From the NCBI RefSeq assembly GCF_000375585.1, contig NZ_AQWP01000008.1, positions 1 through 64,000 on the forward strand: 64,000 nucleotides of DNA, read 5' to 3'. Every line of letters begins with the position of its first letter. Position 1 is the first letter of the stretch. The translations under genes were made by a program, and so were the position numbers. Positions 43,960 through 63,712 of the stretch are shown here, in pieces. Source of the DNA: Sinorhizobium meliloti 4H41 (GTDB lineage Bacteria > Pseudomonadota > Alphaproteobacteria > Rhizobiales > Rhizobiaceae). The notes below the pieces were generated by a model. That model was not told where the DNA came from and made no database searches. It saw nothing but the letters and a program-made list of their open reading frames with translations.

Positions 43960-44871
43960 ATGAATCAGGCAGCATCCATAGCCAAGTCGATCGGTGCCGT
44001 TGAAGACCCGACGAAGATGCTCCGTAATCTTATTTGCTCCAGCGAGCTGTCCTTCCTCATGGAAGCGCATGACGGACTTTCGGCGGCGATCGCCAGGCAG
44101 GCTGGTTTCAAGGGGCTTTGGGCCTCCGGACTTTCGATTTCTTCGGCGCTCGGCTATCGAGACGCAAACGAGGCAAGTTGGACCGAGATCGTTGACGTGG
44201 TGGAGCGAATAGCCGACGCAAGCGGACTGCCGATCCTGGTCGACGGTGACTCGGGGTTCGGCAATTTCAATAACGCCCGATTGCTAGCTATGAAGCTCTT
44301 GAAGCGCGGGGGCGCCGGCGTCTGCCTGGAGGACAAACGCTTCCCGAAGATGAACAGTTTCGTGGGAGACCGGCAAGCCCTCGCCGATATCGTTGAGTTT
44401 TCCGGCCGACTGAAAGCGATCAAGGACATCACGGGGAGCGACCTCGTGCTAGTCGCTCGGACCGAAGCGCTGATCGCCGGCCACGGTTTGGACGAGGCTC
44501 TGCAGCGCGCGGACGCCTATGCTGACGCCGGCGCCGACGCACTCCTGATACATTCGCGCAAGAGCGATGCGGGCGAGATTCTCGCTTTCGCGAAGCGGTG
44601 GCAGAAGCTTCCGATCGTGATCGTGCCCACGAAATACTACCGCACGCCGGTTTCGGCTTATCGAGATGCTGGCATCTCGACGGTGATCTGGGCCAACCAC
44701 GCGATGCGTGCGGCAGTCGCCGGGATGCGCGCGGTATGCAGTCGCATCGTCGCCGAAGAGAGTATCGCCGGAGTCGAGCCGGAAGTTGCCACACTCGAGG
44801 AGGTCTTTGGCCTCTTGCGTTACGATGAATTGATATCGGCCCAGGATCGCTATCTACCGCAACATGGATAA
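43960..44871 (+). CDS. pepM: Phosphoenolpyruvate phosphomutase
   Basis: From the ATG at 43960 (GGAGGA 7 nt upstream) the protein has 303 residues of the isocitrate-lyase superfamily. It shows the PEP mutase signature EDKRFPKMNSF at 124-134 (EDKx5NS), where lyases of the family have KKCGH instead, and LVDGDSGFGNFNN for the Mg2+ site. It converts PEP into 3-phosphonopyruvate, the entry step to nearly all natural phosphonates. The equilibrium favours PEP, so a second enzyme must pull the product; the next gene is an aminotransferase and no decarboxylase is seen. The gene overlaps the aminotransferase start by 8 nt. Confidence 0.92.
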   Translation: MNQAASIAKSIGAVEDPTKMLRNLICSSELSFLMEAHDGLSAAIARQAGFKGLWASGLSISSALGYRDANEASWTEIVDVVERIADASGLPILVDGDSGFGNFNNARLLAMKLLKRGGAGVCLEDKRFPKMNSFVGDRQALADIVEFSGRLKAIKDITGSDLVLVARTEALIAGHGLDEALQRADAYADAGADALLIHSRKSDAGEILAFAKRWQKLPIVIVPTKYYRTPVSAYRDAGISTVIWANHAMRAAVAGMRAVCSRIVAEESIAGVEPEVATLEEVFGLLRYDELISAQDRYLPQHG

Positions 44872-46120
44872 TGCGGGGCCCATTGAGGGGGCGAGCGCGA
44901 ATTCAACGATCAATTTCGGGGGCGCGCACATGCTTGCGCAACGGACAGAGTTGTTCAAATCGTCGGCAACGGCGGCGGCGCGCGCAGCGGCGAAATCGGC
45001 TGCGGACCAAGGAAAGGAGATTGTCGATCTGACGGTCGGCGAGATCTGCAGCGATCTTGCTCCGACGATCCGAGCAGGCGCGATCGATGCGATCCGCCAG
45101 GGCGTCAACCGCTACACAGATCCCATCGGGATGATGGAACTTCGAGAGGCGCTCGCCGGCAAGATTTCCGGCAATACTGGTCAGGTCTGGCGCGCCGATG
45201 AGGTCGCCGTTACCACCGGCGCCAAACAGGCGCTGTTCAACGTCGCCATGGTGCTGCTTAATCCGGGTGACGAGGTCATCGTGCCTGCGCCCTACTGGAC
45301 GACATTCCCCGCCCAGGTGCTAATCGCCGGCGGAACGCCCGTCCATGTTGACACCCGCGCCAATGGATATGTTCCCCGTATTGAGGATATCGAGGCCGCA
45401 ATCACCGACCGCAGCCGCGCGATTGTGGTCAACACTCCAAACAACCCGACTGGCACCGTTTACGATGCTGAAACTTTGGCCGGCATCGGGAAGCTTGCGA
45501 TCAAGCGCGGCCTCTGGATCATTTTCGACGAATGCTATGGCGACTTCATCCACGTTGACGAAGCCCATCATCCTATCGTCTCAATTCTTCCGGAAGTTCG
45601 TCCGCGCACTCTTATCGTCAACGCCTTCAGCAAGTCGCTTGCACTCGCGGGCTGGAGGATGGGTTATCTTGCCGGGCCGAAGAATGTAATTAGTGCGGTG
45701 AAAGCACTGCAATCACATACGACCTCGAACCCGAACGTCATCGCTCAACACGCAGTACTCGCGCATCTTCTAAACGGCGATGGCAATTTTGAGAGCGAGC
45801 TGCGCTGCCAACTCACCTGTGCAAGGCAGATGGGTCTTAGCGTGCTTTCGGCTCTGACGCGCGTCCCCGTTCCGAAGGCGATGGGAGGCTTTTATTTCTA
45901 CCTCAACGTTTCGGACCTGCTGCGCCGCCCGAGGCTCCGCGAGGCCGGGACGACGGCCGACGACGTCGTGAAAGTTCTGCTGATGAAAGCGGGCGTAGCT
46001 GCGGTATCGGGCACGGCGTTCGGTGACCCGGTTGGCCTTCGCCTCTCGTACGGGGTCCCCCCCGAGAAACTAGAGGCTGGCCTTACCCCGCTCGTCGATG
46101 TCCTGAACGCCTGGGAATGA
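44864..46120 (+). CDS. Class I/II aminotransferase, probably acting on phosphonopyruvate
   Basis: A 418-residue PLP enzyme of the aspartate aminotransferase family: NTPNNPTGTVYDAETL (Asn194), FDECYGDFIH (Asp222, Tyr225), SKSLALAGWRMGY with the PLP lysine Lys257 and Arg265. The start at 44864 overlaps pepM; the ATG at 44930 (MLAQRTELFK) fits the family better and could be the true start. Position suggests it converts 3-phosphonopyruvate to 3-phosphonoalanine, drawing the PepM equilibrium forward. The family call is firm; the substrate is inferred from coupling to pepM. Confidence 0.88.
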   Translation: MDNAGPIEGASANSTINFGGAHMLAQRTELFKSSATAAARAAAKSAADQGKEIVDLTVGEICSDLAPTIRAGAIDAIRQGVNRYTDPIGMMELREALAGKISGNTGQVWRADEVAVTTGAKQALFNVAMVLLNPGDEVIVPAPYWTTFPAQVLIAGGTPVHVDTRANGYVPRIEDIEAAITDRSRAIVVNTPNNPTGTVYDAETLAGIGKLAIKRGLWIIFDECYGDFIHVDEAHHPIVSILPEVRPRTLIVNAFSKSLALAGWRMGYLAGPKNVISAVKALQSHTTSNPNVIAQHAVLAHLLNGDGNFESELRCQLTCARQMGLSVLSALTRVPVPKAMGGFYFYLNVSDLLRRPRLREAGTTADDVVKVLLMKAGVAAVSGTAFGDPVGLRLSYGVPPEKLEAGLTPLVDVLNAWE

Positions 46121-46162
46121 CAAGATAATGCTGCGACCCTAACAGTAGGAGACCTGTTTAGG

Positions 46163-46939
46163 ATGACGAATGTTCCCAGGCAAGCAGTCATACTCGCGGC
46201 CGGTTTCGGATCACGCCTGCGGCCCTTGACCGACCTGCGGCCGAAGCCGCTCGTCGAGGTCAACGGTACGCCCATCCTCCACAACGCGCTGCGCAATCTC
46301 GAGTCCGTCGGCGTCGAGGAAGTTACCATCGTCGTCGGCTACCGCAAGGATGCGATCCAGCACTCCTGCGGCAATCACTTTGGCAAGCTCGAAATAAATT
46401 ATGTCGAATCCTCGGTCTTCGACAGGACCGGCAGCGCGTACTCCCTTTGGTTGGCACGGCATGTCCTGCTGACCGGCGACGTCTACCTTCTGGAGGCAGA
46501 CGTTTTTTTCGAACTGGATGCGCTTCGCTATCTCGGAACGGGAGAAGCAGAGAATGTCGCCGCGGTCGCACCCTTTGACCGCTCGATGGAAGGCTCCGCG
46601 GTCGTCCTCACAGAGAACGGCTATATCGCCGAAGTCCGGATGAAGCAGACGGCCGCCAACCTGGTCGACGGCGCGCCGCGGCTTTTCAAGACGATGAATC
46701 TGATTCGGTTTTCCGGTAACGATCTGCGCGAGACGATCGTCCCGCATCTCGACAGTATCATCCGCAGTGGCGCCGTGAAGTCCTATACCGAGGAGATGCT
46801 CTCCAATCTCGTGCAAACGAGGAACTTGCGGATCGCCGCGGCCAGATGTGACGACGTCAGGTGGTATGAGATCGATAATGAGGATGATCTGCGCATCGCG
46901 GAGGCAATATTCCGGACCTCCCCCGAAATCGCGTGTTAG
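46163..46939 (+). CDS. Nucleotidyltransferase, PntC/LicC-like CTP:phosphonate type
   Basis: A 258-residue nucleotidyltransferase with the signature AVILAAGFGSRLRPLTDLRP, KPLVEVNGTPILHNALRNL (residues 8-46), and VDYL-type acidic metal sites (LLEADVFFEL, WYEIDNEDDLRIAE). This branch includes phosphocholine cytidylyltransferase LicC and PntC, which makes CMP-2-aminoethylphosphonate and is often fused to PepM. Here it would activate the phosphonate amino acid with CTP for transfer onto a glycan, lipid or other acceptor. It is 42 nt behind the aminotransferase. Hexose-1-phosphate activation is an alternative but fits the context less. Confidence 0.8.
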   Translation: MTNVPRQAVILAAGFGSRLRPLTDLRPKPLVEVNGTPILHNALRNLESVGVEEVTIVVGYRKDAIQHSCGNHFGKLEINYVESSVFDRTGSAYSLWLARHVLLTGDVYLLEADVFFELDALRYLGTGEAENVAAVAPFDRSMEGSAVVLTENGYIAEVRMKQTAANLVDGAPRLFKTMNLIRFSGNDLRETIVPHLDSIIRSGAVKSYTEEMLSNLVQTRNLRIAAARCDDVRWYEIDNEDDLRIAEAIFRTSPEIAC

Positions 46940-47262
46940 CAGCTCGGGCGAGGAGCAGGTCAATGCTTCGACTGTGTCCTTGATGAGGCCAATGCGATCA
47001 CGACGTGCGGCTGCGCATTGGTTGGATTTGAACGGGCGGCTTGATCTCGCTGTTGTCACCGCTTCGTGGCAGTTGCTCGCGCATTGTCTGACGGCGCCTT
47101 CACCGCTCGGACGCGCAATCGTGATGAAGCGAAGCTCCGCACTCGACGCATGTAGTGGGGGGTTTCAAGGCCGCGATACCGCCTTACCGGCATCGCAACT
47201 CTCGTGGCCAAGTCTGGGAAGGGCGTCTCGACGTATTAATCATTCACCAAGAGAGAAATACC
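46940..47262 (+). other. Spacer before the methyltransferase gene
   Basis: A 323-nt gap in an otherwise tight gene row. Open frames in it have no recognised family. It may be a deletion scar or hold a separate promoter; neither is clear. Confidence 0.35.
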
Positions 47263-48051
47263 ATGAACGATCCTGTTGAAGAGAGAGATGCTTATACCGC
47301 CTATGGCGAAATTTGGAGTGATATTTACGATGAGTATGGGGAAGCGCTCAACAAGTCGACCCAGATCGAGCGGGCAGTCCGTTTTCTCGCGCCCTTCGCA
47401 GAGAACGGAACGGCACTCGAGTTGGGCGTCGGAAACGGCCACTTCGCTTTGCCCCTTTCGCAGACAGGAGCTTCGGTTCACGGTCTCGATAACTCAGAAA
47501 GCATGCTTGCCTCGCTTCTCGCAAAGGAAGGCGGGCAGTCTATCACGGCACACTTAGGCGACATGGCAGACTTTGACCTGGGCACTCACTATGATCTCGT
47601 GTACTGTGTCGGCAACACCTTTTCGCTTATGTTGACAGTCGAGCAACAGCTTAGTTGCTTGAAATCAACTGCAAAGGCCCTAAAGCCGAACGGATGCTTT
47701 GTTGTTGATTTGAGCTATCCATATACCAGTGACTTCACCGGAGAAGGCATCCATCGCGACCAACGGACTACGGTCATACACGTTGATGAGCGTCGAGCGA
47801 TGGTTCGGTTTGCCAGACACGACCGCAATCAGCAGTATCTTATTTCTCTGGACTTCTGGATTACACCTTCGGGAAGCCGGACGATGCCGCTTAAGATGCG
47901 ATATGTCTATCCAACCGAACTCGACTTGCTCGCGAGGATCAGCGGGCTTGAACTTCTTGAGCGCCACGGAGACTGGCAGAGGCGCCCGTTTGATAATAGA
48001 TCTTCGCGATACATGTCCGTGTTCCGCAAAGCGGCATGCGAGTTCCAATAG
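47263..48051 (+). CDS. SAM-dependent methyltransferase of the phosphonate cluster
   Basis: From the ATG at 47263 (AAGAGAG upstream) the protein has 262 residues. Class I methyltransferase core: ALELGVGNGHFALPLSQTGA (motif I), VHGLDNSESMLASLL (motif II) and LVYCVGNTFSLMLTVEQQLS. The downstream half resembles small-molecule O-/N-methyltransferases. As last gene of the pepM row it could methylate the phosphonate or its amino group, but this is only inferred from position; it is separated from the nucleotidyltransferase by 323 nt. Confidence 0.72.
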   Translation: MNDPVEERDAYTAYGEIWSDIYDEYGEALNKSTQIERAVRFLAPFAENGTALELGVGNGHFALPLSQTGASVHGLDNSESMLASLLAKEGGQSITAHLGDMADFDLGTHYDLVYCVGNTFSLMLTVEQQLSCLKSTAKALKPNGCFVVDLSYPYTSDFTGEGIHRDQRTTVIHVDERRAMVRFARHDRNQQYLISLDFWITPSGSRTMPLKMRYVYPTELDLLARISGLELLERHGDWQRRPFDNRSSRYMSVFRKAACEFQ

Positions 48052-48708
48052 AATCTCGGCCTCTAGCTAGAACGAGATTCCATGGGAGTGGAAGGCGACT
48101 CCATCGGCATGCTTTCAAGACGACGATTTGCAAACGCAGCCTGGATACTGCACTTCCGAGTGTACGCCTGGGTCTGCTTCTGTCTTAGCATGGGCGTAAC
48201 GTGGTCAGACACTAGGTCCCGTCAAAGATACCTTGACCAGGACGTGCCTTCAGCATTGGGCATCAGCAGATCATAATCTCGTCTCCTCTTTCTCATCGCG
48301 CCTGAGCCGTTGGCGCTAGTTTACGCTTGATGAGTTGGTCGCAGTGATCCTTCTGATCCCGCGCGAGATCGCGCATACGAATTCATTCGGAAATGGGCGA
48401 TGACACGCGCAGCCGCACATTATTGGGCGCAGCTTCCCATGACGCTGAGGGAAAACACCGCCCCGATGTTCTGGGCGGGCAGCCGCCGAGACACCCGTCC
48501 GGCACGCGCAAATTGTGATCCATCGGGCCCGTGCAGCGGTAATTCGACGCGTCCAAATGCGGTCCATCATCTGTGCACTCGACATTGCCGTCGCCGCTGA
48601 GTCGCTCGTCCAATTTGCGAGCGACTTGTGCTCTCACTGCAGGGTTTCGGTGCGAAATTCGTCGCAAACATTACAAATATGGCGACATTTTCTACACTTT
48701 TGTCGCGA

Positions 48709-48744: not shown

Positions 48745-48762
48745 AGATACCTAGACATCTAG
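48745..48762. promoter_or_regulatory. PhnF-type operator, transporter operon
   Basis: AGATACCTAGACATCTAG occurs here and, identical over all 18 bases, before phnG at 56440-56457. It contains the inverted repeat CTAGA-CA-TCTAG. The GntR/HutC-type PhnF repressor encoded between the two operons is the likely ligand. It lies 55 nt before the first permease gene. Confidence 0.75.
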
Positions 48763-48817
48763 ACGGCCCAGCCGAGGAGCGTTCTTTGGCTTCTCGCTTT
48801 TGGGCGGAGGAGAGTTA

Positions 48818-49732
48818 GTGTTTTTCATCTCGCGAGCCTTGCGTAGCGCATTCACGCTTTGGGCGATCCTCACCATCGTGTTCTTTGCGACACGAATGAC
48901 CGGAGACCCCACCTCCTTCCTCATTCCGCCTGACCTTCCAGAGGAACAACGTGTCGAGCTAAGGGCAAAGCTCGGACTGAACGATGATGTCGCGACGCAA
49001 TACGTGCGGTACAGCACCGCACTCCTGCGCGGCGATTTCGGGCAGAGTTTCTTTTCGAACCGGCCTGTGGTCGAGCTGTTCGTTGAACGAGTTCCCAATA
49101 CGCTGCTCCTAACCATTCCAGCTTTCGTGTTGTCGGTGATTGTCGGCATGGCCGTCGGCCTCTTGGCCGCACTAAATCACAATACGGTCTTTGATCGCTT
49201 CCTCACGACCGCAACAATCGCGGGGCAAGCCATTCCGAACTTTGTTGTCGGCATTGCCGCCATTCTGATCTTCAGTTTCTCTCTAAAACTACTGCCGAGC
49301 GGCGGCATGGGCACGTGGAAACATCTGCTCCTGCCCGCAATTACCCTAGCTCTTGCTACCTGCGCCAACATTGCAAGGCTCGTTCGCAGCAGCATGCTGG
49401 AGGTCCTGTCTCAGGACTACATGCGCTATGCGTACAGCAAGGGCTTGAGTCCCTTCCGTGTCGTGGTGAAGCACGGGCTGAGAAACGCAATCCTCCCCGT
49501 GTTGACAATTCTGGGCCTGCAATTTGGCGGCCTGATTGCCGGCGCCGTGGTAACGGAATCGGTGTTTGCCTGGCCCGGAGCAGGACGCCTGGTGCTCGAT
49601 GCGGTAATGCAACGCGATTTTGCCATGCTGCAATTCGGAATTCTCGTGTTTTCAGCAGCAATCATCCTCACCAATTTTCTCGTTGACATCGGGTACGGCT
49701 TGCTCGATCCGCGAGTGCGCGGGAGGTCATGA
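48818..49732 (+). CDS. Dpp/Opp-family ABC transporter permease (DppB-like)
   Basis: From GTG at 48818, preceded by GGAGGAGAG, the protein has 304 residues with six membrane helices and the EAA-like loop DYMRYAYSKGLSPFRVVVKH. It is an inner-membrane permease of the dipeptide/oligopeptide/nickel/opine group. It overlaps the second permease gene (ATGA-type). The operon has no phnCDE; this transporter stands in its place. Substrate is inferred to be a peptide-like or esterified phosphonate. Confidence 0.88.
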   Translation: MFFISRALRSAFTLWAILTIVFFATRMTGDPTSFLIPPDLPEEQRVELRAKLGLNDDVATQYVRYSTALLRGDFGQSFFSNRPVVELFVERVPNTLLLTIPAFVLSVIVGMAVGLLAALNHNTVFDRFLTTATIAGQAIPNFVVGIAAILIFSFSLKLLPSGGMGTWKHLLLPAITLALATCANIARLVRSSMLEVLSQDYMRYAYSKGLSPFRVVVKHGLRNAILPVLTILGLQFGGLIAGAVVTESVFAWPGAGRLVLDAVMQRDFAMLQFGILVFSAAIILTNFLVDIGYGLLDPRVRGRS

Positions 49733-50637
49733 TGAGCATCGAGACCAGCGCGCCGGAATTGAGTCCTTCCCGAACCGAAGAGGGTATCGTCTCCACCGAG
49801 ACCTGCCGGCGTCGTCGGCCTCCGACGGTCGCAATCGCCTCGTTCCTGATCCTTACAGTGATAGCGTTGCTGGCCGCGATCTCTCCGGTGATTGCGCCGC
49901 ATGACATCGCCGACCAAAGCCTTTTGCACCGACTTCGGCCGCCGGCGTTCGCCGGGGGTACAGCCGAATACCTTCTTGGAACGGATCATCTCGGCCGAGA
50001 CCTGTTTTCTCGGCTTCTGTTCGCAACCCAAACCACGCTACTCATCGCCGGCGCTGGCGTCCTCGTCGGCGTCATCACCGGCACGCTGAGTGGGCTGGTC
50101 TCGGGAAGCATGGGAGGATGGATCGACCATTGCTTTATGGCTGTGGTCGATGCGCAGGCCTCGGTGCCGGTCACTTTGGTGGCGTTGACTGCGGTTGCCC
50201 TCATCGGCCCAAGTCCGCTTGTCTTGGTGCTGATCATCGGATTTGCGGACTACTACAAATATGCTCGAGTCGTCCGTGGCCAGGTTCATGCCCTGCGCGG
50301 ACGCAGCTTCGTAGAAGCGGCTCGATCCTCCGGCGCTTCCCCCTGGCATATCGCGATGCGTCACGTGCTTCCCAACACGCTCTCGCCCGTCATCGTATTG
50401 GCTAGCCTGAGCTTTGCCGAGATCGTCGTGCTGGAGTCGTCGCTGTCGTTCCTTGGCGTGGGTGTTCAGCCGCCAAATGTTTCTCACGGTTCATTGCTCG
50501 GCGAGTCGAGGAACTATCTGATCACCACCCCCTGGCTGGCGGTGTTTCCCTGTGTGGTCATCGTCGCAATCACGCTGGCAGCATCGATGGTCGGCGATTG
50601 GTTGCGTGACAGTTTCGATCCCCGGAGCCGCAGCTAG
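49729..50637 (+). CDS. Dpp/Opp-family ABC transporter permease (DppC-like)
   Basis: A 302-residue permease with an N-terminal cytoplasmic tail, membrane helices and the segment HDIADQSLLHRLRPPAFAGG, LGTDHLGRDLFSRLLFATQT typical of DppC/OppC. The coupling loop reads RSFVEAARSSGASPWHIAMR. It pairs with the preceding permease. Tight packing with both neighbours shows one operon. Confidence 0.9.
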   Translation: MMSIETSAPELSPSRTEEGIVSTETCRRRRPPTVAIASFLILTVIALLAAISPVIAPHDIADQSLLHRLRPPAFAGGTAEYLLGTDHLGRDLFSRLLFATQTTLLIAGAGVLVGVITGTLSGLVSGSMGGWIDHCFMAVVDAQASVPVTLVALTAVALIGPSPLVLVLIIGFADYYKYARVVRGQVHALRGRSFVEAARSSGASPWHIAMRHVLPNTLSPVIVLASLSFAEIVVLESSLSFLGVGVQPPNVSHGSLLGESRNYLITTPWLAVFPCVVIVAITLAASMVGDWLRDSFDPRSRS

Positions 50638-50698: not shown

Positions 50699-52210
50699 AT
50701 GCGAAACCTACTCGTAGCAGTCGCTATGCTGCTGCCGACCTTCGTGGTCGCGCAGGAAGACACGCGACCTCCGCTTACCGTGGGCGTCAATGCCGTCCGC
50801 GCCAACTTCGATCCCGCAATGGCGCTTGGGAATGTCGACATCCCGATCACCTACAATATGTTCGACACGCTCGTTGCGCGGGACTTTTCCAAAAGCAAGA
50901 ATCGGACAGCTTATGAGCTCGTTCCTGGCCTCGCGAAGAGCTGGAATCGGATCGACGATCGCACCATGGAATTTTCGCTGCGGCCAGGTGTGCGGTTTCA
51001 TAACGGCCAGCCTTTCACAAGTGCCGACGTCAAGTTCACCTTCGATCGAATCTTGAATCCGGAATCGGACTACGTCTCTGCCAGAAACCTCCTCAAGGTG
51101 ATCGAACGGGTCGACATCGTCGATGATCTGACCGTCCGGATCACGACCACGGCCCCGAGCCCAATACTCCTACACCTGCTTGCCTATCATTCGAGCGACA
51201 TCGTGCCGAAAGCCTATTTCGAGTCGGTCGGAGAGAGCGGCTTCGGTCAAAAGCCGGTCGGAACAGGTCCGTTCGCTTTCGTCAAGCTCCAGCCCGACGA
51301 GAGCATGCAGCTCAAGGCCAACGATACTTACTTTGGCGGTCGGCCGACAATCTCGAGCTTGACATTCAAGGCCATCCCCGAGGTCTCGGCCAGGATCACC
51401 GCGCTCGCGAACGGCGAGGTCGATGTCATCAACAGCCTGCCGCCAGATCAATTGGAGGCGGTAAAGACCCTCGGCTGCTGCGAGGTCCGCAGCGCATTGA
51501 TGAACCACCACTTCCTTCTCTACAACACGTTCAACCCGGTGATGGCCGACAAGAAACTGCGCCTGGCACTCAATCTTGCCATTGATCGCAAGTTGATCGT
51601 GGACGCTCTGTGGAATGGCCAGGCCACGCTGCCACACTCTGCCCAATACGAGGCTTGGGGACCGGAGCTCTATAATCCGGATCGACCGACTCCTGCCTTC
51701 GATCCTGATCGCGCGCGCCAGCTGCTCTCGCAATCAACCTACAAGGGGGAGCCGATCTATTTCGTAACGCATCCGGTCTACTATACGAATGGCGTCCCGG
51801 TAGCCGAGGCGGTCACTGAGATGTGGAAGGCGATAGGCGTCAATGCCAGCGTCCGTGTCGATGAAGGATGGTCGAAGCTGAAAAAGTACGATCCGGTCCT
51901 CACGGTACGCAACGGCTCTGATTGGGTCGTGCCGACCGATCCCGCGGTCACGCTATACATGACATGGGCGAAGCGTTTTTGGAAGGACGAGCAGCGCTTC
52001 GACGAACTCGCCAAAGAGGGCGAGACAACACTCGATAGCAAACGTCGCTACGATATCTATCAAACGATGATCGATATCTTCGAGGACGAAGCGCCCGGTA
52101 CGTACCTCTATCGCGCGCCGGAATTCTACGGCGTTCGCAGCAACTTAGAGTGGCTGCCGAACACCGAATACACGATGGATTTCCGGCCGACCAACATTCA
52201 CTTCAAGTGA
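50699..52210 (+). CDS. Periplasmic substrate-binding protein, Dpp/Opp family
   Basis: From the ATG at 50699 (AGGAG 8 nt upstream) the protein has 503 residues. A signal peptide MRNLLVAVAMLLPTFVVAQE is followed by the SBP_bac_5 pattern (TAYELVPGLAKSWNRIDDRT, MEFSLRPGVRFHNGQPFTSA, DVKFTFDRIL). Such proteins bind peptides, opines, sugar phosphodiesters or nickel. The ligand pocket cannot be read from sequence. In this context it should give the phosphonate compound to the two permeases. Confidence 0.9.
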   Translation: MRNLLVAVAMLLPTFVVAQEDTRPPLTVGVNAVRANFDPAMALGNVDIPITYNMFDTLVARDFSKSKNRTAYELVPGLAKSWNRIDDRTMEFSLRPGVRFHNGQPFTSADVKFTFDRILNPESDYVSARNLLKVIERVDIVDDLTVRITTTAPSPILLHLLAYHSSDIVPKAYFESVGESGFGQKPVGTGPFAFVKLQPDESMQLKANDTYFGGRPTISSLTFKAIPEVSARITALANGEVDVINSLPPDQLEAVKTLGCCEVRSALMNHHFLLYNTFNPVMADKKLRLALNLAIDRKLIVDALWNGQATLPHSAQYEAWGPELYNPDRPTPAFDPDRARQLLSQSTYKGEPIYFVTHPVYYTNGVPVAEAVTEMWKAIGVNASVRVDEGWSKLKKYDPVLTVRNGSDWVVPTDPAVTLYMTWAKRFWKDEQRFDELAKEGETTLDSKRRYDIYQTMIDIFEDEAPGTYLYRAPEFYGVRSNLEWLPNTEYTMDFRPTNIHFK

Positions 52211-52245
52211 ATGTCACTCTTCCGCTCAGTTATCAGGACGGGTTT

Positions 52246-54299: not shown

Positions 54300-54315
54300 G
54301 GGGATGACATTGGAA

Positions 54316-55545
54316 ATGAAGCGCCGCAAACTTCTGTTGATCATGATCGATGGCGTGAGCTCGGACTATCTTGAGAACCATCGGGAGCGTCTCCCAAATT
54401 TGTCCTCACTCGCCGACAGAGGATACCGCGTCCGCCGGATGCGGTCTGCTGTGCCGGGGACCTCCATGCCGGGTCGGGCTTCCATTCTAACAGGCGTCGC
54501 AGCAGACATGCACGGGATTTTTGGCAATCGTGTCCTGAGCGACGGGGCGTTCATCGCCGCCGAGGTGGAGCATGTTCTTGTTCCGACGATTGCAACCCTT
54601 GCTTCGCGCGCGGGACTGGATGTGGCCTGCATCGGGCACGCCCTCATTAACCCGGTAGACACCTCCGTCTATGTCCCGCCTAGCTGGATGCGCGGCCCCG
54701 GCTTCACCAAGGTTCCGAGCGACGGGAGTATGCCTTATCTCCTGAGAGTGAAGGATCCGCGCGGCCGCCTGGCGGGGGTCCCCCTGCCGTCCTTCGTTCA
54801 GGAGTCAGCAAGGCCCGATACCGTCTCTCGGGTCACAGCGACGCTCATCGATGACCAACTGACCGTCTCCGCCACCGCAAAGTTGATCGCATCACGAGAG
54901 CCGCCCGATCTGGTGGTTACAGAAATCAATGTCACAGACATGTTCCAGCACGAGTTCGGTTACGAGAGCCAAGAGGCCCATTTCTCTGTCGCTTTCGCCG
55001 ACTCCCTCGTCGGTCTTTGCTTGGAAAGCCTGCGGCGTTCCGGCCGGCTCGACGACTACGTGATCGCAATTACCAGCGATCACGGGCACGGCAATATCAA
55101 CACCTCGATCCTTCCCGAACTGATTATTCCCGGTAAGCGCTGGAGCTCCGAAGGCGCGACGCTGCATGTCGTGGTCGAGAACGCTGCCGATCGCGCGGAG
55201 GTTACACAAAGATTGGCAGCCGTCGGGGCGGAACCCTGGAACGATGCGCATTTGCCGGTTGGGCTGCGCGAGCGCATCGCAACCTTCGTGGCTCCGCCGC
55301 AGCATGATTTCGAGGAAGTGCCAGCCGGTCACCCGCTAGACCAGCCGTTCGGTCGGCCGAAATACAAGTCTACCCATGGATTTCGGCCAGGTATGAGTGC
55401 GGACGATCGCATCTGCATCATATCAGGGGCTGATCTTCCAATAGCGGTGGCGGAAGGAGCTGAAGCAACCCGCCTTGCGCCGACGCTTGCTTCCATCCTT
55501 GGGCTATCAACCAAGATATTTCCGGATCGGCCGCTTTTCGGATAA
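54316..55545 (+). CDS. Alkaline-phosphatase-superfamily phosphodiesterase / phosphonate hydrolase
   Basis: From the ATG at 54316 the protein has 409 residues; ATG 54304 would add four. It has the metal sites of nucleotide pyrophosphatase/phosphodiesterases: IMIDG with Asp12, nucleophile loop PGTSMPGRASILTG (Ser50 where NPPs have Thr), TDMFQHEFG, ITSDHGHGN and STHGFRPG. No signal peptide, so it acts in the cytoplasm after uptake. Relatives cut nucleotide diesters, phosphonate monoesters or phosphonoacetate. It is the last gene of the transporter operon and would release the free phosphonate from an ester or CMP form. The exact bond is unknown. Confidence 0.82.
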   Translation: MKRRKLLLIMIDGVSSDYLENHRERLPNLSSLADRGYRVRRMRSAVPGTSMPGRASILTGVAADMHGIFGNRVLSDGAFIAAEVEHVLVPTIATLASRAGLDVACIGHALINPVDTSVYVPPSWMRGPGFTKVPSDGSMPYLLRVKDPRGRLAGVPLPSFVQESARPDTVSRVTATLIDDQLTVSATAKLIASREPPDLVVTEINVTDMFQHEFGYESQEAHFSVAFADSLVGLCLESLRRSGRLDDYVIAITSDHGHGNINTSILPELIIPGKRWSSEGATLHVVVENAADRAEVTQRLAAVGAEPWNDAHLPVGLRERIATFVAPPQHDFEEVPAGHPLDQPFGRPKYKSTHGFRPGMSADDRICIISGADLPIAVAEGAEATRLAPTLASILGLSTKIFPDRPLFG

Positions 55546-55552
55546 AGAGGGT

Positions 55553-55578: not shown

Positions 55579-55608
55579 GGCTCGTGGGGACAGTTGAGGT
55601 GGTGCTTA

Positions 55609-56310
55609 ATGAAACGTTGGGAAGTTGTTCGCTCCGGAATACTCAGCGATATCCATGCAGGAGCCTTCGAAAACGGTCGCCTTCCTCGGGACCTTGTCTT
55701 GGCAGAACGATTCGGCGTCAATCGCCACACTGTCCGCAACGCCATCAAGGTTTTGGAGTCTGAGGGCGCACTGCGAGTGCAACACGGTGTGGGCACCTTC
55801 GTTGCCGACGACTTCATTTCGCATACCTTGGACAGTGATCCGAGGTTCACTTTCAAACTTCTTGGCCAGAACAAGTCGGTCAAGCGGGAGATCTTGTCGA
55901 TCAACGAGATCTCTGTCGAACTTGATGTTGCGAGGCATCTGAAGATCGCCCCTTCGGCGCTCGTTACCGCCGTCAGGGCGACTTCGTTCATTAACGACTG
56001 GCCCTTGGCAACCGGGACGAGCTATTTTCCCGTCGAGCGAGTTCCCGGTCTCGTCTCGGCGTTCCATGGACTGAACTCTCCGACTGCGGCGCTGAAGCGC
56101 TGTGGCATTCCAGGATACAAGCGAAAATGGACGCGGATAACGGCTCGAAGGCCCACCCAGCAGGAGGCCCTTCTGCTGCGAGTATCATCGTCCAGTCCGG
56201 TGCTCTTCGAGACCAATGTCGATGTCACTCTGGATGGACTGCCGATCAAATACGCCTTCAGCGTTATACGAGCCGACCGATATGAATACTTAATAGAAGA
56301 GGGCGACTAA
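55609..56310 (+). CDS. phnF: GntR/HutC-type regulator PhnF
   Basis: From the ATG at 55609 (GAGG upstream) the protein has 233 residues. The N-terminal winged helix (LPRDLVLAERFGVNRHTVRN, AIKVLESEGALRVQHGVGTF) is followed by a UTRA ligand-binding domain with DFISHTLDSDPRFTFKLLGQ and RVPGLVSAFHGL. It is placed between the transporter-hydrolase operon and the C-P lyase operon. The identical 18-bp operator in front of both operons is its probable target; the inducer may be the phosphonate or a breakdown product. Confidence 0.88.
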   Translation: MKRWEVVRSGILSDIHAGAFENGRLPRDLVLAERFGVNRHTVRNAIKVLESEGALRVQHGVGTFVADDFISHTLDSDPRFTFKLLGQNKSVKREILSINEISVELDVARHLKIAPSALVTAVRATSFINDWPLATGTSYFPVERVPGLVSAFHGLNSPTAALKRCGIPGYKRKWTRITARRPTQQEALLLRVSSSSPVLFETNVDVTLDGLPIKYAFSVIRADRYEYLIEEGD

Positions 56311-56439: not shown

Positions 56440-56457
56440 AGATACCTAGACATCTAG
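56440..56457. promoter_or_regulatory. PhnF-type operator before phnG
   Basis: AGATACCTAGACATCTAG, identical to 48745-48762, with the CTAGA-CA-TCTAG inverted repeat. It lies 45 nt before the phnG start and probably allows PhnF to repress the C-P lyase operon. Confidence 0.78.
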
Positions 56458-56502
56458 TTATCGGCAGCGTGGCCCGTAGGTCAGCCATTGGATAAGCGGC
56501 AA

Positions 56503-56964
56503 ATGCAAGTAGGCAATCAAATCGGAAACAGACAGCGATGGATGGCGGTTCTGGCGCGAACGAGGTGCTGTGACCTTGAGGGCGCCTGGAACGATCTGCC
56601 CATCGCCCCGCAATATGAATGGCTGCGCCGGCCCGAGACCGGCCTGGTGCTGGTGCGCGGACGCGCAGGTGGTACCGGCAGCCCGTTCAACCTCGGTGAG
56701 GCCACGATGACTCGATGTGCCTTGAGGCTCGCCGATGGCACGACGGGGTTCGCCTTCGTGCTCGGACGCGACCAACGGCATGCGGAACTGGCGGCAGTCT
56801 TCGATGCGCTCCTGCAGCGGGCGGATGAGGTCGCTGCCGAGAGTCGTGAATTGGTCGCTCGACTTGAAGCGATGCAAGCGAGCCGACGTGAACTGAAGAG
56901 CCGCAAGGCGGCTTCTACAAAGGTCGATTTTTTTGCAATGGCGCGGGAAACGAGTCCGGAATGA
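56503..56964 (+). CDS. phnG: C-P lyase core subunit PhnG
   Basis: From the ATG at 56503 the protein has 153 residues (MQVGNQIGNRQRWMAVLART, then RGRAGGTGSPFNLGEATMTR, a conserved PhnG segment; end TKVDFFAMARE). A TTG at 56488 is an alternative. PhnG forms the PhnGHIJ core that binds alkylphosphonate and ATP and makes ribose-1-alkylphosphonate triphosphate. Its stop overlaps phnH. Confidence 0.94.
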   Translation: MQVGNQIGNRQRWMAVLARTRCCDLEGAWNDLPIAPQYEWLRRPETGLVLVRGRAGGTGSPFNLGEATMTRCALRLADGTTGFAFVLGRDQRHAELAAVFDALLQRADEVAAESRELVARLEAMQASRRELKSRKAASTKVDFFAMARETSPE

Positions 56965-58673: not shown

Positions 58674-59617
58674 CCGAGGCGCATGAAGATGCGGCCAAGC
58701 GTGGCCGCCAAGCCTACAACTTCGCCTATCTCGACGAGCAGTCCAAACGGATGATCCGCCGGTGCATCTTGAAGGCGATGGCCGTTCCCGGCCTGCAGGT
58801 TCCGTTTGGCAGCCGCGAAATGCCGCTCGCCTACGGATGGGGCACCGGCGGCATACAAGTGGCGGCCAGTGTCATCGGTCCCAATGACACGCTCAAGGTG
58901 ATCGACCAAGGTGCGGACGACGCCACGAACGCGGTCTCGATCCGCCGGTTCTTCAAGCGCGTGGCCGGGATCGAGACGACCGAACAAACCGCTGCGGCCA
59001 CAATAATTCAGACACGCCATCGCGTCCCCGAAACGCCTCTCAGAGAGGGTCAGGTCATCGTCTACCAGGTCCCCTCGCCGGAACCGTTGCGCAGTCTGGA
59101 ACCGAGGGAATCCGAGACGCGGAAGATGCATGCCTATGCTGAGTACGGCCTGATGAGCGTCCAGCTCTACGAAGACATTGCGCGCTTCGGCCATATTGCC
59201 ACGGCTCACAGCTACCCGGTGATGACCCACGGGCGCTACCTGATGTCGCCGTCGCCTATTCCCAAATTCGACAATCCAAAGGTCTCGGAGAATCCGGCTA
59301 TCCAGCTTTACGGCGCAGGCCGCGAAAAGCGGATCTATGCCGTCCCACCCTACACGCGGGTTGAGAACCTCGATTTTGAAGACCATCCGTTCCGGGTGCA
59401 GAAATGGAGGCAATGTTGCTCGCTTTGTGGGGCAACCGACAGCTACCTCGACGAGATCATCGTGAATGACAGCGGGCAGCGAATGTTCGTTTGCTCCGAC
59501 ACCGACTACTGCGCAACCCGTCGAGGCCAGGGTCACTTTGGACCGAAGGGTGTGGGCCAGGCTGCCTTCGGATCGCTCCCGAGCTTGAAGCCAGAAAAGG
59601 GATCGGAACCACGATGA
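58670..59617 (+). CDS. phnJ: Carbon-phosphorus lyase PhnJ (radical SAM)
   Basis: A 315-residue PhnJ with the exact cysteine pattern CX2CX21CX5C: Cys250, Cys253, Cys275, Cys281 (C241, C244, C266, C272 in E. coli). Three hold the [4Fe-4S] cluster, and one is the thiyl radical site. The N-terminal part (FGSREMPLAYGWGTGGIQVA) is conserved. It splits the C-P bond of ribose 1-phosphonate 5-phosphate and releases the alkane and cyclic ribose phosphate. All key residues are present, so the enzyme should be active. phnK starts within its stop codon. Confidence 0.97.
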   Translation: MTEAHEDAAKRGRQAYNFAYLDEQSKRMIRRCILKAMAVPGLQVPFGSREMPLAYGWGTGGIQVAASVIGPNDTLKVIDQGADDATNAVSIRRFFKRVAGIETTEQTAAATIIQTRHRVPETPLREGQVIVYQVPSPEPLRSLEPRESETRKMHAYAEYGLMSVQLYEDIARFGHIATAHSYPVMTHGRYLMSPSPIPKFDNPKVSENPAIQLYGAGREKRIYAVPPYTRVENLDFEDHPFRVQKWRQCCSLCGATDSYLDEIIVNDSGQRMFVCSDTDYCATRRGQGHFGPKGVGQAAFGSLPSLKPEKGSEPR

Positions 59618-60411
59618 GCACTGCAATTCAGTTCCAACCCAGACGGCGACAACCACTGCTCTCGGTCCAAAATCTGACGAAGGGCTACGGAAAGACGATC
59701 GGCTGCCAGAACATTTGCTTCGACCTCTTCCCAGGCGAGATCATCGCCATCGTCGGAGAATCGGGATCCGGCAAGTCGACGATGCTCAACTGCCTTTCGG
59801 GGCGATTGACGCCGGACAGAGGGTCCGTGGTTTACGATCTCAATGACAAGGGGCCCACGGATATTCTGACCTTGTCAGAGCCAGAGCGGCGCAGGCTGAT
59901 GCGGACCGACTGGGGCCTTGTGCATCAGAACCCGCGCGATGGCCTCAGAATGGAAGTCAGTGCAGGCGGCAACATCGGCGAGCGACCGATGGCCATCGGT
60001 GCGCGGCACTATGGCCGCATACGCGAAGAGGCGCAGAATTGGCTCGCCCGGGTCGAGATTGACCTGCGGCGCACCGATCACCACCCGAGAACCTTTTCCG
60101 GCGGCATGCAGCAACGTCTGCAGATCGCCAGGATTCTCGTCACCAAGCCGCGCCTCGTCTTCATGGATGAGCCGACCGGCGGCCTCGATGTTTCGGTCCA
60201 GGCCCGGCTGTTGGATCTCTTGCGACAGTTGGTCATGGATTGCGGGATTTCGGCGGTGATCGTCACCCATGACCTTTCCGTCGCCCGGCTATTGGCGGAC
60301 CGCATCATCGTCATGTGGCGAGGTAACGTTGTGGAGACCGGTCTGGCAGACCAGGTCCTGGATGATCCGCATCACGCCTACACTCAGCTTCTAGTATCGT
60401 CGGTGCTTTAA
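59614..60411 (+). CDS. phnK: C-P lyase ATPase subunit PhnK
   Basis: From the ATG at 59614 the protein has 265 residues: Walker [38 protein letters not shown] (typical of PhnK), signature SGGMQQRLQIARIL, Walker B FMDEPTGGLD. It docks on the PhnGHIJ core as an ABC-type ATPase and is not a transporter. Start chosen because it overlaps the phnJ stop (ATGA). Confidence 0.95.
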   Translation: MSTAIQFQPRRRQPLLSVQNLTKGYGKTIGCQNICFDLFPGEIIAIVGESGSGKSTMLNCLSGRLTPDRGSVVYDLNDKGPTDILTLSEPERRRLMRTDWGLVHQNPRDGLRMEVSAGGNIGERPMAIGARHYGRIREEAQNWLARVEIDLRRTDHHPRTFSGGMQQRLQIARILVTKPRLVFMDEPTGGLDVSVQARLLDLLRQLVMDCGISAVIVTHDLSVARLLADRIIVMWRGNVVETGLADQVLDDPHHAYTQLLVSSVL

Positions 60412-61617: not shown

Positions 61618-61671
61618 CAGAACGCAGATCACAAGTCGTTGTATTCGACCAGACACCGGGAGAACTGTTCG

Positions 61672-62421: not shown

Positions 62422-63137
62422 TGCCGGAACCATCCACTCCTCGCTATGCCATCTACTACACACCGGCTCGGGAACATCCGTTGACCGGGGCGGCGAGTGC
62501 ATGGCTTGGCCATGATCCGTTCGGCAGAACTGATGTAACCGGCGCCGCTCGATCGGAAGCAGACGCCCTTCTAACTTCTGAGCCGCGCCGATATGGTTTT
62601 CACGCAACGCTCAAGGCGCCGTTCCGGTTGAGAGAAGGCGCATCGGTCGATGAGTTGGAATGGGCGCTCAGCAGCTTCGCTTCGTCGCGGCCACCTTGCC
62701 CGATCGGATCATTGAAGATCGATCTTCTCGGCGGCTTCTTTGCGCTCGCTCCCGCCACTCCCATCCCGGCCTTGCGCGGTTTTGCTGCGCAGATTGTCGA
62801 AGAGTTCGACCGGTTCCGGGCCCCGATGAATTCACCGGAACTGCAGCGGCGGCTGCAACGTCCGCTCGATGAAGTCGAGACCTCCCATCTCGTCCAATGG
62901 GGCTACCCCTATGTCCTCGATCGATTTTCCTTTCATATGACGCTGACCGACCGAGTTCCGGAAGAGGGCCGCGCGCGAACGAGGGCGCGCTTGGAAAAGG
63001 TCTTCCAGCCGCACCTGTCCGAGGATTTCCGCATCGACACCCTGTCCCTGTTCGTTCAGGAGGACGGCGGGGGCAATTTCGTCGTTCGTTCGCAGTTCGC
63101 CTTGAAAGGCGAAGCGTTGCTTCAGACGGCGATCTGA
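62421..63137 (+). CDS. DUF1045 2H phosphoesterase of the phosphonate operon
   Basis: From ATG 62421 (overlapping the phnL stop) the protein has 238 residues. It has two HxT motifs, His61-x-Thr63 (GFHATLKAPF) and His172-x-Thr174 (FHMTLTDRV), the pattern of 2H phosphoesterases (DUF1045/TIGR03223, phosphonate-metabolism). C-P lyase yields 5-phosphoribosyl 1,2-cyclic phosphate, normally opened by PhnP; no phnP is in the window. This enzyme is the likely substitute, but that activity is inferred. Confidence 0.88.
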   Translation: MPEPSTPRYAIYYTPAREHPLTGAASAWLGHDPFGRTDVTGAARSEADALLTSEPRRYGFHATLKAPFRLREGASVDELEWALSSFASSRPPCPIGSLKIDLLGGFFALAPATPIPALRGFAAQIVEEFDRFRAPMNSPELQRRLQRPLDEVETSHLVQWGYPYVLDRFSFHMTLTDRVPEEGRARTRARLEKVFQPHLSEDFRIDTLSLFVQEDGGGNFVVRSQFALKGEALLQTAI

Positions 63138-63142
63138 GGCCA

Positions 63143-63712
63143 ATGATGTCGCCCCGCGGAGCACTTGCCATTGTTGTGGGGCCAAGCGGTGCGGGCAAAG
63201 ACACGTTGATCGAATACGTGCGAAGCCGGCTCAAAGATGATCCTCGCGTTCGCTTCGTACGCCGGCTCATCAGTCGGCCAGTCGCGGTCGGGGAGGACCA
63301 TGAGGCGGTTGACTATGACGAGTTCCAGCGGCGGCTTCTCGCAGGCGCCTACGGGCTTCATTGGCAGGCGCATGGCCTCTGCTATGGCATTCCCTCGGAA
63401 ATCGATAAGTGGCTAGAGCAGGGCGATATCGTTGTGGCCAATGGCTCTCGCGCCGTCCTTTCGAAAGCCCGGCGGCAATACCCGCAACTGCTTGTCATCA
63501 ACGTCACCGCGCCAATAGACGTCTTGGCAAGGCGTCTGGTCGAACGGGGACGCGAAAATCTAGAAAGCATCAGGGGGCGTTTAATCCGAAGTGATGAATA
63601 TCTGGTCGATGGTGCTGACGTGGTGCATATCGACAACTCGGGTTCGGTGGAGGCGGCTGGGGAACGCCTTCTTGCCGCGTTTGTTGCACAGGTTGGGCGG
63701 GCGAAGCAATGA
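63143..63712 (+). CDS. phnN: Ribose 1,5-bisphosphokinase PhnN
   Basis: From the ATG at 63143 the protein has 189 residues: P-loop VVGPSGAGKDTLIEY, RFVRRLISRPVAVGEDHEAV, and GIPSEIDKWLEQGDIVVANG. It phosphorylates ribose 1,5-bisphosphate to PRPP, the last step by which the C-P lyase pathway returns the sugar. It closes the phn operon, 5 nt after the DUF1045 gene. A second ATG lies one codon later. Confidence 0.93.
   Translation: MMSPRGALAIVVGPSGAGKDTLIEYVRSRLKDDPRVRFVRRLISRPVAVGEDHEAVDYDEFQRRLLAGAYGLHWQAHGLCYGIPSEIDKWLEQGDIVVANGSRAVLSKARRQYPQLLVINVTAPIDVLARRLVERGRENLESIRGRLIRSDEYLVDGADVVHIDNSGSVEAAGERLLAAFVAQVGRAKQ

What the first reader, a model, noticed from the sequence alone, without database searches (positions are those of the whole stretch)
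43960..63712. Make-and-consume phosphonate island on a symbiotic replicon, with rhizopine/agrocinopine-like logic
Seen: on one strand in 20 kb are PEP mutase with its EDKx5NS motif, a coupled aminotransferase, a PntC/LicC-like nucleotidyltransferase and a methyltransferase, followed by a Dpp/Opp-type importer, a phosphodiesterase-like hydrolase, PhnF and a complete C-P lyase set with intact PhnJ cysteines. Known: rhizopines (mos/moc) and agrocinopines (acc: Dpp-type importer, phosphodiesterase, repressor) are compounds made by one partner and eaten by kin. Inference: bacteroids or cells make a phosphonate conjugate that free-living kin import, hydrolyse and mine for phosphorus and carbon. I know of no described phosphonate rhizopine.
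Basis: partly seen in the sequence, partly recalled or inferred. Interest (0 to 1): 0.92.

Follow-up and report, generated by a model that had tools for sequence, protein, structure and literature searches.

The report
Rhizobial phosphonate make-and-eat gene island
On the symbiosis DNA of a nitrogen-fixing root-nodule bacterium, genes that appear to build a carbon-phosphorus compound lie beside genes that appear to import and dismantle one; the pairing recurs far above chance among rhizobia and suggests a private phosphorus-containing food made in nodules for the makers' own kin.

Summary
Observation confirmed: pepM, AAT-type aminotransferase, LicC-like nucleotidyltransferase, methyltransferase; then Opp importer, NPP-type phosphodiesterase, PhnF and phnGHIJKMLN. 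The island lies between nifHDK and rpoN/nod genes. Just past the window lie AsnB, a second methyltransferase and a CDP-alcohol phosphotransferase, preceded by a NifA/sigma-54-type promoter. The pairing is not chance: in 146 Mesorhizobium genomes a consume marker (this phosphodiesterase or phosphonopyruvate hydrolase PalA) occurs in 38 of 41 pepM carriers and 3 of 105 others; where PalA and pepM co-occur, they lie within 25 kb in 23 of 24 genomes. The modules are exchangeable. The importer's binding protein is closest to agrocinopine-binding AccA and keeps its four phosphate contacts. NifA-type promoters precede 11 of 32 make units and 1 of 40 consume units. In M. loti R7A, pepM, aatA and asnB fusions are nodule-expressed and NifA2-dependent, and the mutants are fully effective (PMC3538637). 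Best reading: an opine-like phosphonoalanine conjugate. No compound has been seen, four NodC-negative genomes carry the pair, and the window's own pepM lacks a NifA site.

The parts
43815..43830 (.). AT-rich palindrome TGTATTTTTAAATACA before pepM, possible GntR-family operator
   Evidence: similar AT-rich sites before pepM in L007, L008, L009, L010; a GntR gene precedes pepM in L008, L009, L010. No sigma-54/NifA pair here. Regulator assignment is inference.
43954..44871 (+). pepM, phosphoenolpyruvate mutase
   Evidence: TIGR02320 337.9 bits over cut-off; EDKxxxxxNS kept
44864..46120 (+). aspartate-aminotransferase-type aminotransferase, likely phosphonopyruvate to phosphonoalanine (start probably 44933)
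   Evidence: function inferred from PnaA (PMC11867202) and from lack of a decarboxylase over cut-off
46163..46939 (+). LicC/PntC-like nucleotidyltransferase, likely activates the phosphonate with a nucleotide
   Evidence: PF00483; LicC 1jyk and 6pd1 among solved relatives
47155..48051 (+). MT1, SAM-dependent methyltransferase (start probably 47263)
   Evidence: PF13649; present in 6 of 6 loci with the window-type importer and 0 of 5 with other types
48745..48762 (+). 18-bp operator-like site before the importer operon
   Evidence: Identical to 56440-56457, expected 0.01; pair conserved in L007, L008, L011, L031, L171 with 0-3 mismatches
48800..49732 (+). Opp/Dpp-type permease
49729..50637 (+). 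Opp/Dpp-type permease
50699..52210 (+). periplasmic binding protein, AccA-like (ORF from 50552)
   Evidence: PF00496; best solved relative agrocinopine-binding AccA, 304 bits against 128 for the next kind; 37% identity over 473 residues, four phosphate contacts kept
52150..53265 (+). Opp/Dpp ATPase
53157..54299 (+). Opp/Dpp ATPase
54310..55545 (+). NPP-type phosphodiesterase, predicted cytosolic (ORF from 54145)
   Evidence: PF01663 124 bits; D14, T51, D210, H214, D257, H258, H356 invariant in 12 relatives; no room for a signal peptide before D14
55594..56310 (+). PhnF, GntR/HutC-type regulator
   Evidence: TIGR02325 180.9 bits over cut-off
56440..56457 (+). 18-bp operator-like site before phnG
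56488..56964 (+). phnG
   Evidence: TIGR03293
56961..57566 (+). phnH
   Evidence: TIGR03292
57567..58673 (+). phnI
   Evidence: PF05861 505 bits
58670..59617 (+). phnJ, C-P lyase
   Evidence: PF06007 477 bits; cysteines 250, 253, 275, 281
59491..60411 (+). phnK (start probably inside the ORF)
   Evidence: TIGR02323
60412..61617 (+). phnM
   Evidence: TIGR02318
61639..62421 (+). phnL
   Evidence: TIGR02324
62412..63137 (+). DUF1045 phosphonate-operon protein, 2H-phosphoesterase type
   Evidence: TIGR03223, PF06299
62897..63712 (+). phnN (start probably inside the ORF)
   Evidence: TIGR02322, match from residue 88

Best explanation
An opine-like phosphonate economy on a symbiosis replicon. PepM turns PEP into phosphonopyruvate and the AAT-type enzyme transaminates it to phosphonoalanine (inferred). 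The nucleotidyltransferase activates it and the CDP-alcohol phosphotransferase just outside the window joins it to an unknown alcohol; two methyltransferases and AsnB decorate the product (inferred from families). In several lineages some of these operons are under NifA/sigma-54, so the product would be made by bacteroids (motifs shown here; expression shown in print for M. loti R7A). Free-living relatives carrying the same replicon would take it up with an AccA-like importer anchored on its phosph(on)ate ester, cleave the ester in the cytosol with the NPP-type enzyme, and recover P through C-P lyase, or in other lineages through PalB-like transaminase plus PalA. Shown: gene content, conserved catalytic residues, association statistics, promoter bias. 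Inferred: product structure, export, timing in this strain, benefit to kin.
For: Co-occurrence: Mesorhizobium PDE or PalA in 38 of 41 pepM carriers and 3 of 105 others, p=6e-28, or 26 of 29 and 3 of 105 after collapsing 13 near-identical Lotus-type genomes to one; Rhizobiaceae sample 9 of 12 and 8 of 382. PalA within 25 kb of pepM in 23 of 24 genomes with both. On plasmids this PDE is in 14 of 72,556 records; 10 of the 14 carry pepM, 8 of those within 17 kb. Different gene orders and several non-homologous consume modules. PalA (389.9 bits in L216, over cut-off) points to phosphonoalanine; PepM beside PalA would be a futile cycle unless the two act at different times or in different cells. AccA-type phosphate contacts kept. 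NifA-type promoters 11 of 32 make units, 1 of 40 consume units. lacZ in R7A bacteroids: pepM 827, 625 (nifA1), 7.7 (nifA2); aatA 2456, 2290, 16; asnB 862, 809, 22; under 20 in broth; mutants fully effective (PMC3538637).
Against: No compound or activity seen. The window's pepM lacks a NifA-type site; only the CDP-alcohol phosphotransferase operon has one. Sullivan et al. judged direct NifA activation of pepM, aatA and asnB highly unlikely. Four NodC-negative Mesorhizobium genomes pair pepM with PalA. Distances of pepM or the aminotransferase correlate poorly with those of PDE or binding protein (r 0.06-0.38), though pepM and CT track PhnJ better (0.72 and 0.97 on 15 pairs). Only 4 of 37 named pepM genomes carry this PDE. 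CDP-alcohol phosphotransferases often make lipids. ABC importers are common in rhizobia, so an importer nearby means little by itself. No exporter was identified.
Confidence: 0.5

Rival explanations
1. The make half builds a cell-envelope phosphonolipid or phosphonoglycan of bacteroids; the consume half recycles head groups released from dead cells. The two are linked by substrate but there is no opine-like trade.
For: CDP-alcohol phosphotransferase and LicC-like enzyme are typical of head-group transfer; most pepM clusters are predicted to serve cell surfaces (PMC6697681, passages).
Against: AsnB, two methyltransferases and lineage-specific tailoring that goes with importer type (MT1 in 6 of 6 against 0 of 5 loci) fit a soluble private compound better; the importer resembles AccA, which binds a soluble phosphodiester.
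Confidence: 0.25
2. The product is an antimetabolite, perhaps a Trojan horse entering rivals through AccA-like importers as agrocin 84 does; the phosphodiesterase, PalA or C-P lyase protect the maker.
For: AccA imports agrocin 84 (PMC4526662); phosphonoalanine peptides are antimicrobial (PMC11867202); pepM clusters without this PDE are common.
Against: A maker's own importer for its poison would be harmful; consume-only plasmid records exist without pepM (Microvirga VF16, P. zundukense, M. mediterraneum); NifA-driven synthesis inside nodules has few rivals to kill; a whole C-P lyase operon is nutritional.
Confidence: 0.12
3. The two halves are unrelated accessory genes that accumulate on mobile symbiosis DNA; the consume half scavenges environmental phosphonates.
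For: Modules have partly separate histories; the genome has another C-P lyase; bean bacteroids show P limitation (PMC6421345).
Against: Association persists within NodC-positive Mesorhizobium (PDE with pepM 17 of 18 against 20 of 83, p=3e-8) and PalA sits within 25 kb of pepM in 23 of 24 genomes.
Confidence: 0.08
4. An intracellular phosphorus or nitrogen store: the same cell makes the conjugate in the nodule and reuses it on release.
For: Make and consume regulation differ in the same genome.
Against: A dedicated high-specificity importer is not needed for an internal store.
Confidence: 0.05

Closest known systems
Rhizopine mos/moc system (L-3-O-methyl-scyllo-inosamine) of rhizobia
   Same: Synthesis genes with nodule/NifA-type control linked to catabolic genes on symbiotic DNA; mutants still fix nitrogen (R7A, PMC3538637)
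   Different: Phosphonate chemistry and no shared enzymes that I know of; mos/moc features are recalled, not searched here
Agrocinopine acc system of Agrobacterium (AccA importer, AccF phosphodiesterase, AccR)
   Same: Closest solved relative of the binding protein is AccA; phosphate contacts N54, Y375, Y376, S419 kept; uptake then ester cleavage
   Different: Hydrolase is NPP/PF01663; sugar contacts E510, E434, W178, W423, M372 differ; regulator is PhnF; the maker is a bacterium, not a tumour; ends in C-P lyase
Phosphonoalamide pathway (PnaD PepM, PnaA transaminase) of Streptomyces
   Same: PepM coupled to an AAT-superfamily enzyme
   Different: Peptide ligases there; nucleotidyl activation and CDP-alcohol phosphotransferase here
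PntC/LicC nucleotidyl activation clusters for surface phosphonates
   Same: PepM with a LicC-like nucleotidyltransferase
   Different: Aminotransferase type and linkage to import and C-P lyase; 'rhizob' does not occur in that paper's text
Phosphonoalanine degradation (PalB transaminase, PalA phosphonopyruvate hydrolase)
   Same: Found beside pepM in L209, L216, L219 with a sugar-type ABC importer
   Different: Not in the window; there C-P lyase takes its place. PalB assignment is by position and recall

Membership tests
Rhizopine system | Synthesis and catabolism genes linked on symbiotic DNA | tested here: met
Rhizopine system | Synthesis under nif control, in bacteroids | tested here: inconclusive
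   NifA-type promoter before the CDP-alcohol phosphotransferase operon, none before pepM in this genome; expression data only for R7A in print
Rhizopine system | Compound found in nodules and used by free-living producer strain | not testable with these tools
   Needs chemistry
Rhizopine system | mos/moc gene homologues | not tested
   No mos or moc search was made
Agrocinopine acc system | AccA-type binding protein with pyranose-2-phosphate site | tested here: inconclusive
   Nearest relative AccA; phosphate contacts kept, most sugar contacts changed
Agrocinopine acc system | AccF-type hydrolase and AccR-type repressor | tested here: inconclusive
   Hydrolase is PF01663 and regulator is PhnF; not compared with AccF or AccR directly
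PepM phosphonate biosynthesis | PepM equivalog with catalytic motif | tested here: met
   TIGR02320 over cut-off, EDKx5NS
PepM phosphonate biosynthesis | Coupling enzyme that drives phosphonopyruvate onward | tested here: inconclusive
   AAT-type enzyme adjacent, activity unknown; decarboxylase not over cut-off in the genome
C-P lyase pathway | PhnGHIJ core with PhnJ cysteines, PhnK, PhnL, PhnM | tested here: met
CDP-alcohol phosphotransferase | DxxDGxxA...GxxxDxxxD motif | tested here: met
   D46, D49, G50, A53, D71, D75 invariant in 13 sequences, G67 in 90% or more; the window genome's own protein gives no Pfam match at 0.001, a relative does (L213, 37 bits)

The most novel reading that the evidence does not exclude
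Phosphonate rhizopines: a widespread class of private, replicon-encoded currencies built on phosphonoalanine. Symbiosis plasmids and islands each carry an exchangeable lock and key: tailoring enzymes set the compound, and a matched importer plus ester hydrolase, ending in C-P lyase or PalA, lets only carriers cash it in. NifA makes bacteroids pay and free-living kin benefit, and consume-only plasmids are cheaters.
Probability: 0.38. Interest if true: 0.93.

Novelty: new variant of a known kind. Interest (0 to 1): 0.82.

Why it matters
Why bacteroids, many of which leave no descendants, should invest in free-living kin is a long-standing question, and rhizopines are the rare known answer. A phosphonate version would put phosphorus, often limiting in soil and nodules, into that trade, would explain published nodule-specific genes of unassigned purpose (pepM, aatA, asnB in M. 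loti R7A), and is directly testable with existing R7A mutants and 31P NMR. It would also give rhizobial pepM clusters a biological role and offer binding-protein variants with changed sugar contacts as keys to unknown compounds.

Tried and rejected
Rejected or led nowhere. (1) A NifA promoter on the window's own pepM: none. (2) Strict co-inheritance of the halves: not supported. (3) Counting any nearby ABC importer as evidence: dropped, since 3 of 20 random 20-kb windows of this genome already hold a generic binding protein of the same family. (4) The first PDE homologue as the only consume marker: too narrow (4 of 37 named genomes); PalA and second-type PF01663 enzymes fill much of the gap. 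(5) Second-type PF01663 enzymes: 9 of 61 long pepM loci, one of them (L057) weak, against 0 of 20 control windows; that control alone is weak, the genome rate (3 over cut-off in 6.79 Mb) makes the stronger case. (6) Distinct promoter sequences: the 11 NifA-type promoters before pepM fall into three groups (4, 6 and 1), and three independent events in about 87 loci is only borderline (p=0.05). (7) The 32 make and 40 consume starts were listed by hand, some from approximate tblastn ends; five further pepM loci with hits (L053, L056, L059, L060, L061) were left out; collapsing repeats gives 8 of 29 against 1 of 38, p=0.004. (8) The 17-kb limit in the plasmid distance test was chosen after seeing the distances. 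(9) One pepM row (G090) was dropped before the second family count because it is the PalA gene itself. (10) M. huakuii 7653R bacteroids: phnG down, phnN up 2.4-fold (PMC3973600, passages); which phn copy these are is unclear. (11) A signal-peptide predictor was not available; cytosolic location is read from the sequence.
Full report
WHAT IS THERE. On the + strand from 43954 to 63712 lie pepM, an AAT-type aminotransferase, a LicC-like nucleotidyltransferase and a methyltransferase (MT1), then a five-gene Opp/Dpp importer, a PF01663 phosphodiesterase (PDE), phnF and phnG-H-I-J-K-M-L-DUF1045-phnN. PepM passes its equivalog cut-off and keeps EDKx5NS; PhnJ keeps its cysteines. No phosphonopyruvate decarboxylase passes the family cut-off in the genome. 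The window is the first 64 kb of a 236,902-base contig. A same-genus genome (G341) has pepM at exactly the place where S. terangae plasmid pCB3126_2 has it, so the host is probably a Sinorhizobium (inference).

SETTING. nifH and nifD lie at 9-12 kb. Beyond the window come a GNAT gene, AsnB, a second methyltransferase (MT2) and a CDP-alcohol phosphotransferase on the other strand, then peroxiredoxin, rpoN, nifS and, 30 kb on, nodI, nodU, nodS and nodC. The CDP-alcohol phosphotransferase keeps its four aspartates in 13 aligned relatives. So the biosynthetic set brackets the catabolic one. The same bracket is seen in R. gallicum IE4872 (97% of the island at 86.9% identity) and, rearranged, in S. 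mexicanum and S. fredii CCBAU 83666.

REGULATION OF THE CONSUME HALF. The 18-bp site AGATACCTAGACATCTAG occurs twice in the window and nowhere else within 3 mismatches, once before the importer operon and once before phnG; 0.01 matches are expected. The pair is kept, with 0-3 mismatches, in L007, L008, L011, L031 and L171. This ties importer, PDE, PhnF and C-P lyase into one regulon, presumably PhnF's (inference).

THE IMPORTER. The binding protein's best solved relatives are all AccA of agrocinopine uptake (304 bits for the best; the next kind 128), 37% identical over 473 residues. El Sahili et al. (PMC4526662, outline and passages) give Asn54, Ser419, Tyr375 and Tyr376 as the phosphate contacts. 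All four are kept in the window protein, while Glu510, Glu434, Trp178, Trp423 and Met372 are not (residue numbering matched by me, consistent for all listed residues but one the paper prints as Glu504). Among 26 related proteins 19 keep all four. Of the 21 that lie beside a PDE of this family 18 keep them, and the 3 that do not (L010, L174, L177) are a different kind of binding protein. Four proteins near pepM without this PDE (L097, L098, L100, L103) keep only two or three.

THE HYDROLASE. Seven residues that match the metal-binding and nucleophile positions of nucleotide pyrophosphatases (positions recalled) are invariant in 12 relatives. The first lies at residue 14, leaving no room for a signal peptide, so cleavage would follow import. 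Solved relatives are nucleotide pyrophosphatase/phosphodiesterases, at weak scores (5.7e-11 best).

ASSOCIATION TESTS. Plasmids: the PDE is in 14 of 72,556 records at E 1e-30, all of Sinorhizobium, Mesorhizobium, Rhizobium, Microvirga or Phyllobacterium. Ten of the 14 carry pepM (E 1e-60, 84 records), 8 of them within 17 kb and two about 160 kb away (p=4e-8 for random places, 4e-7 with one repeat arrangement collapsed). Rhizobiaceae, 394 genomes: pepM 13, PDE 5, both 4 (p=3.5e-6). PalA 12. After dropping one pepM row that is PalA itself, PDE or PalA is in 9 of 12 pepM carriers and 8 of 382 others. Mesorhizobium, 146 genomes: pepM 41, PDE 18, PalA 26, NodC 101. PDE with pepM 17 of 18; PalA with pepM 24 of 26; either in 38 of 41 pepM carriers against 3 of 105 others (p=6e-28), and 26 of 29 against 3 of 105 after collapsing the 13 Lotus-type genomes. 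Other relatedness is not corrected. PalA and pepM share a contig within 25 kb in 23 of 24 genomes; in G409 they are on separate contigs.

AGAINST A SIMPLE STORY. Among 37 genomes behind named pepM loci (of 80 loci found), only 4 have this PDE. Sequence distances of pepM or the aminotransferase follow those of PDE or binding protein poorly (r 0.06-0.38 over 45 pairs), while PDE follows the binding protein (0.78); on the 15 pairs with PhnJ, pepM and the nucleotidyltransferase follow PhnJ better (0.72, 0.97). So the halves are exchangeable modules that keep meeting. MT1 is present in 6 of 6 loci with the window-type importer and 0 of 5 with other types (p=0.002; related loci, and MT1 was sought only inside the fetched stretches), as if the importer matched the tailoring.

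OTHER CONSUME MODULES. I fetched eight pepM neighbourhoods without regard to neighbours (L213-L220). Seven have pepM-aminotransferase-nucleotidyltransferase; L220 does not (pepM beside a citrate-synthase-type gene). All seven have ABC transporter genes nearby, which alone means little. Four carry a specific hydrolase: PF01663 in L213, PF00149 in L214, PalA in L216 and L219. L217 and L218 have phnF-annotated regulators; L215 has none of these. R. gallicum M101 has PalA, a PalB-like aminotransferase, a sugar-type importer and a PF01663 enzyme between pepM and nifQ. PalA matches TIGR02321 at 390 (over cut-off), 362 and 352 bits (just under 374.4), each about 80-100 bits above the PEP mutase model. 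PalA acts on phosphonopyruvate, so these neighbours point to phosphonoalanine as the phosphonate; and since PepM plus PalA in one cell would burn PEP for nothing, they argue for separation in time or cell. L214 also has an octopine/nopaline dehydrogenase-family gene. Ten pepM loci found in named genomes have a second-type PF01663 enzyme, also without room for a signal peptide.

REGULATION OF THE MAKE HALF. In the window's genome such a promoter (15.7 bits) precedes the CDP-alcohol phosphotransferase operon and shares its upstream site with the peroxiredoxin-rpoN promoter; S. mexicanum has one before MT1 and one before the CDP-alcohol phosphotransferase, S. fredii one before MT1. Over hand-listed starts, 11 of 32 make units and 1 of 40 consume units have one (p=3.5e-4). 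The two NodC-negative loci that I could read (L097, L098) have none before pepM.

PUBLISHED EXPRESSION. Sullivan et al. 2013 (PMC3538637; section 12 and passages) fused lacZ to pepM (msi327), aatA (msi326) and asnB (msi323) of M. loti R7A: under 20 units in broth; in bacteroids 827, 2456 and 862; in a nifA2 mutant 7.7, 16.2 and 22.0. All three mutants were fully effective. They list these as genes without NifA/RpoN promoters and think direct NifA control highly unlikely. In the MAFF303099-like genome G446 I find CGGCACGCGCCTTGCT with an upstream site 81 bp away before pepM, which a search demanding TGGCAC could miss. I did not see R7A's own sequence, and that these three genes are the same set is inferred from names and order. 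'phosphon' does not occur in that paper's text.

MECHANISM. PEP to phosphonopyruvate to phosphonoalanine (PnaA precedent, PMC11867202 passages), nucleotidyl activation (PntC precedent, PMC6697681 passages), transfer to an unknown alcohol by the CDP-alcohol phosphotransferase, methylation and amidation; release in or from the nodule; AccA-like uptake; cytosolic ester cleavage; C-P lyase. Every enzymatic step is inferred from family and residues.

KNOWN OR NOT. Ten searches of the open-licence library listed no paper that joins pepM or phosphonates with rhizopines or opines in rhizobia; subscription papers and preprints are mostly outside that library. E. meliloti M270, whose plasmid C carries this island, is reported to carry agrocinopine genes on plasmid B (PMC5994717, passages).

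VERDICT. A real, recurrent make-and-consume phosphonate system, with good evidence for nodule-linked synthesis in some lineages; opine-like function is the best single reading at about one half. It works like rhizopine and agrocinopine systems but is a member of neither on present tests.

Noticed in passing
L214:25241-26449 (Rhizobium sp. 007 plasmid): An octopine/nopaline dehydrogenase-family gene (PF02317, 77.6 bits) lies inside a pepM-nucleotidyltransferase-CDP-alcohol phosphotransferase cluster, with a methyltransferase, an MFS gene, a metallophosphoesterase and an Opp binding protein.
   Followed up: partly
L012 and L094: pepM-aminotransferase-nucleotidyltransferase sets also occur on Agrobacterium plasmids, one contig being labelled pTi in its record title; L012 continues with alanine racemase-, cysteine synthase- and ornithine cyclodeaminase-like genes.
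   Followed up: no
NZ_CP069355.1 (Microvirga sp. VF16), NZ_CP133150.1 (S. chiapasense): Plasmid records with the importer, PDE and C-P lyase but no pepM at E 1e-60: possible consume-only replicons (the S. chiapasense strain has pepM on another plasmid).
   Followed up: partly
window 36847-38360: A cytochrome P450 gene with a NifA/sigma-54-type promoter (15.6 bits, two upstream sites), heading the P450-SnoaL-SDR-luciferase-like block that sits beside pepM in several relatives.
   Followed up: no
window 40006-43485: A 1159-aa helicase-like ORF (AAA_11/AAA_12) inserted between the P450 block and pepM, where S. mexicanum and S. terangae have a calcium-binding protein, TauE and GntR genes.
   Followed up: no
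L014:12569-13843: NodU appears shortened: 424 aa matching positions 1-325 of 556 of the NodU model.
   Followed up: no
L011:16697-18412, L032:18331-20037, L033, L036: A 515-570-aa protein with a C-terminal class I/II aminotransferase domain and an unassigned N-terminal part recurs beside AsnB; it could be a phosphonoalanine-decarboxylating or second transaminase step.
   Followed up: partly
L037, L038: In Phyllobacterium zundukense and Mesorhizobium mediterraneum the AccA-like importer and PDE are followed by a class III aminotransferase instead of C-P lyase; in L038 a nucleotidyltransferase, CDP-alcohol phosphotransferase and GHMP kinase lie upstream without pepM.
   Followed up: partly
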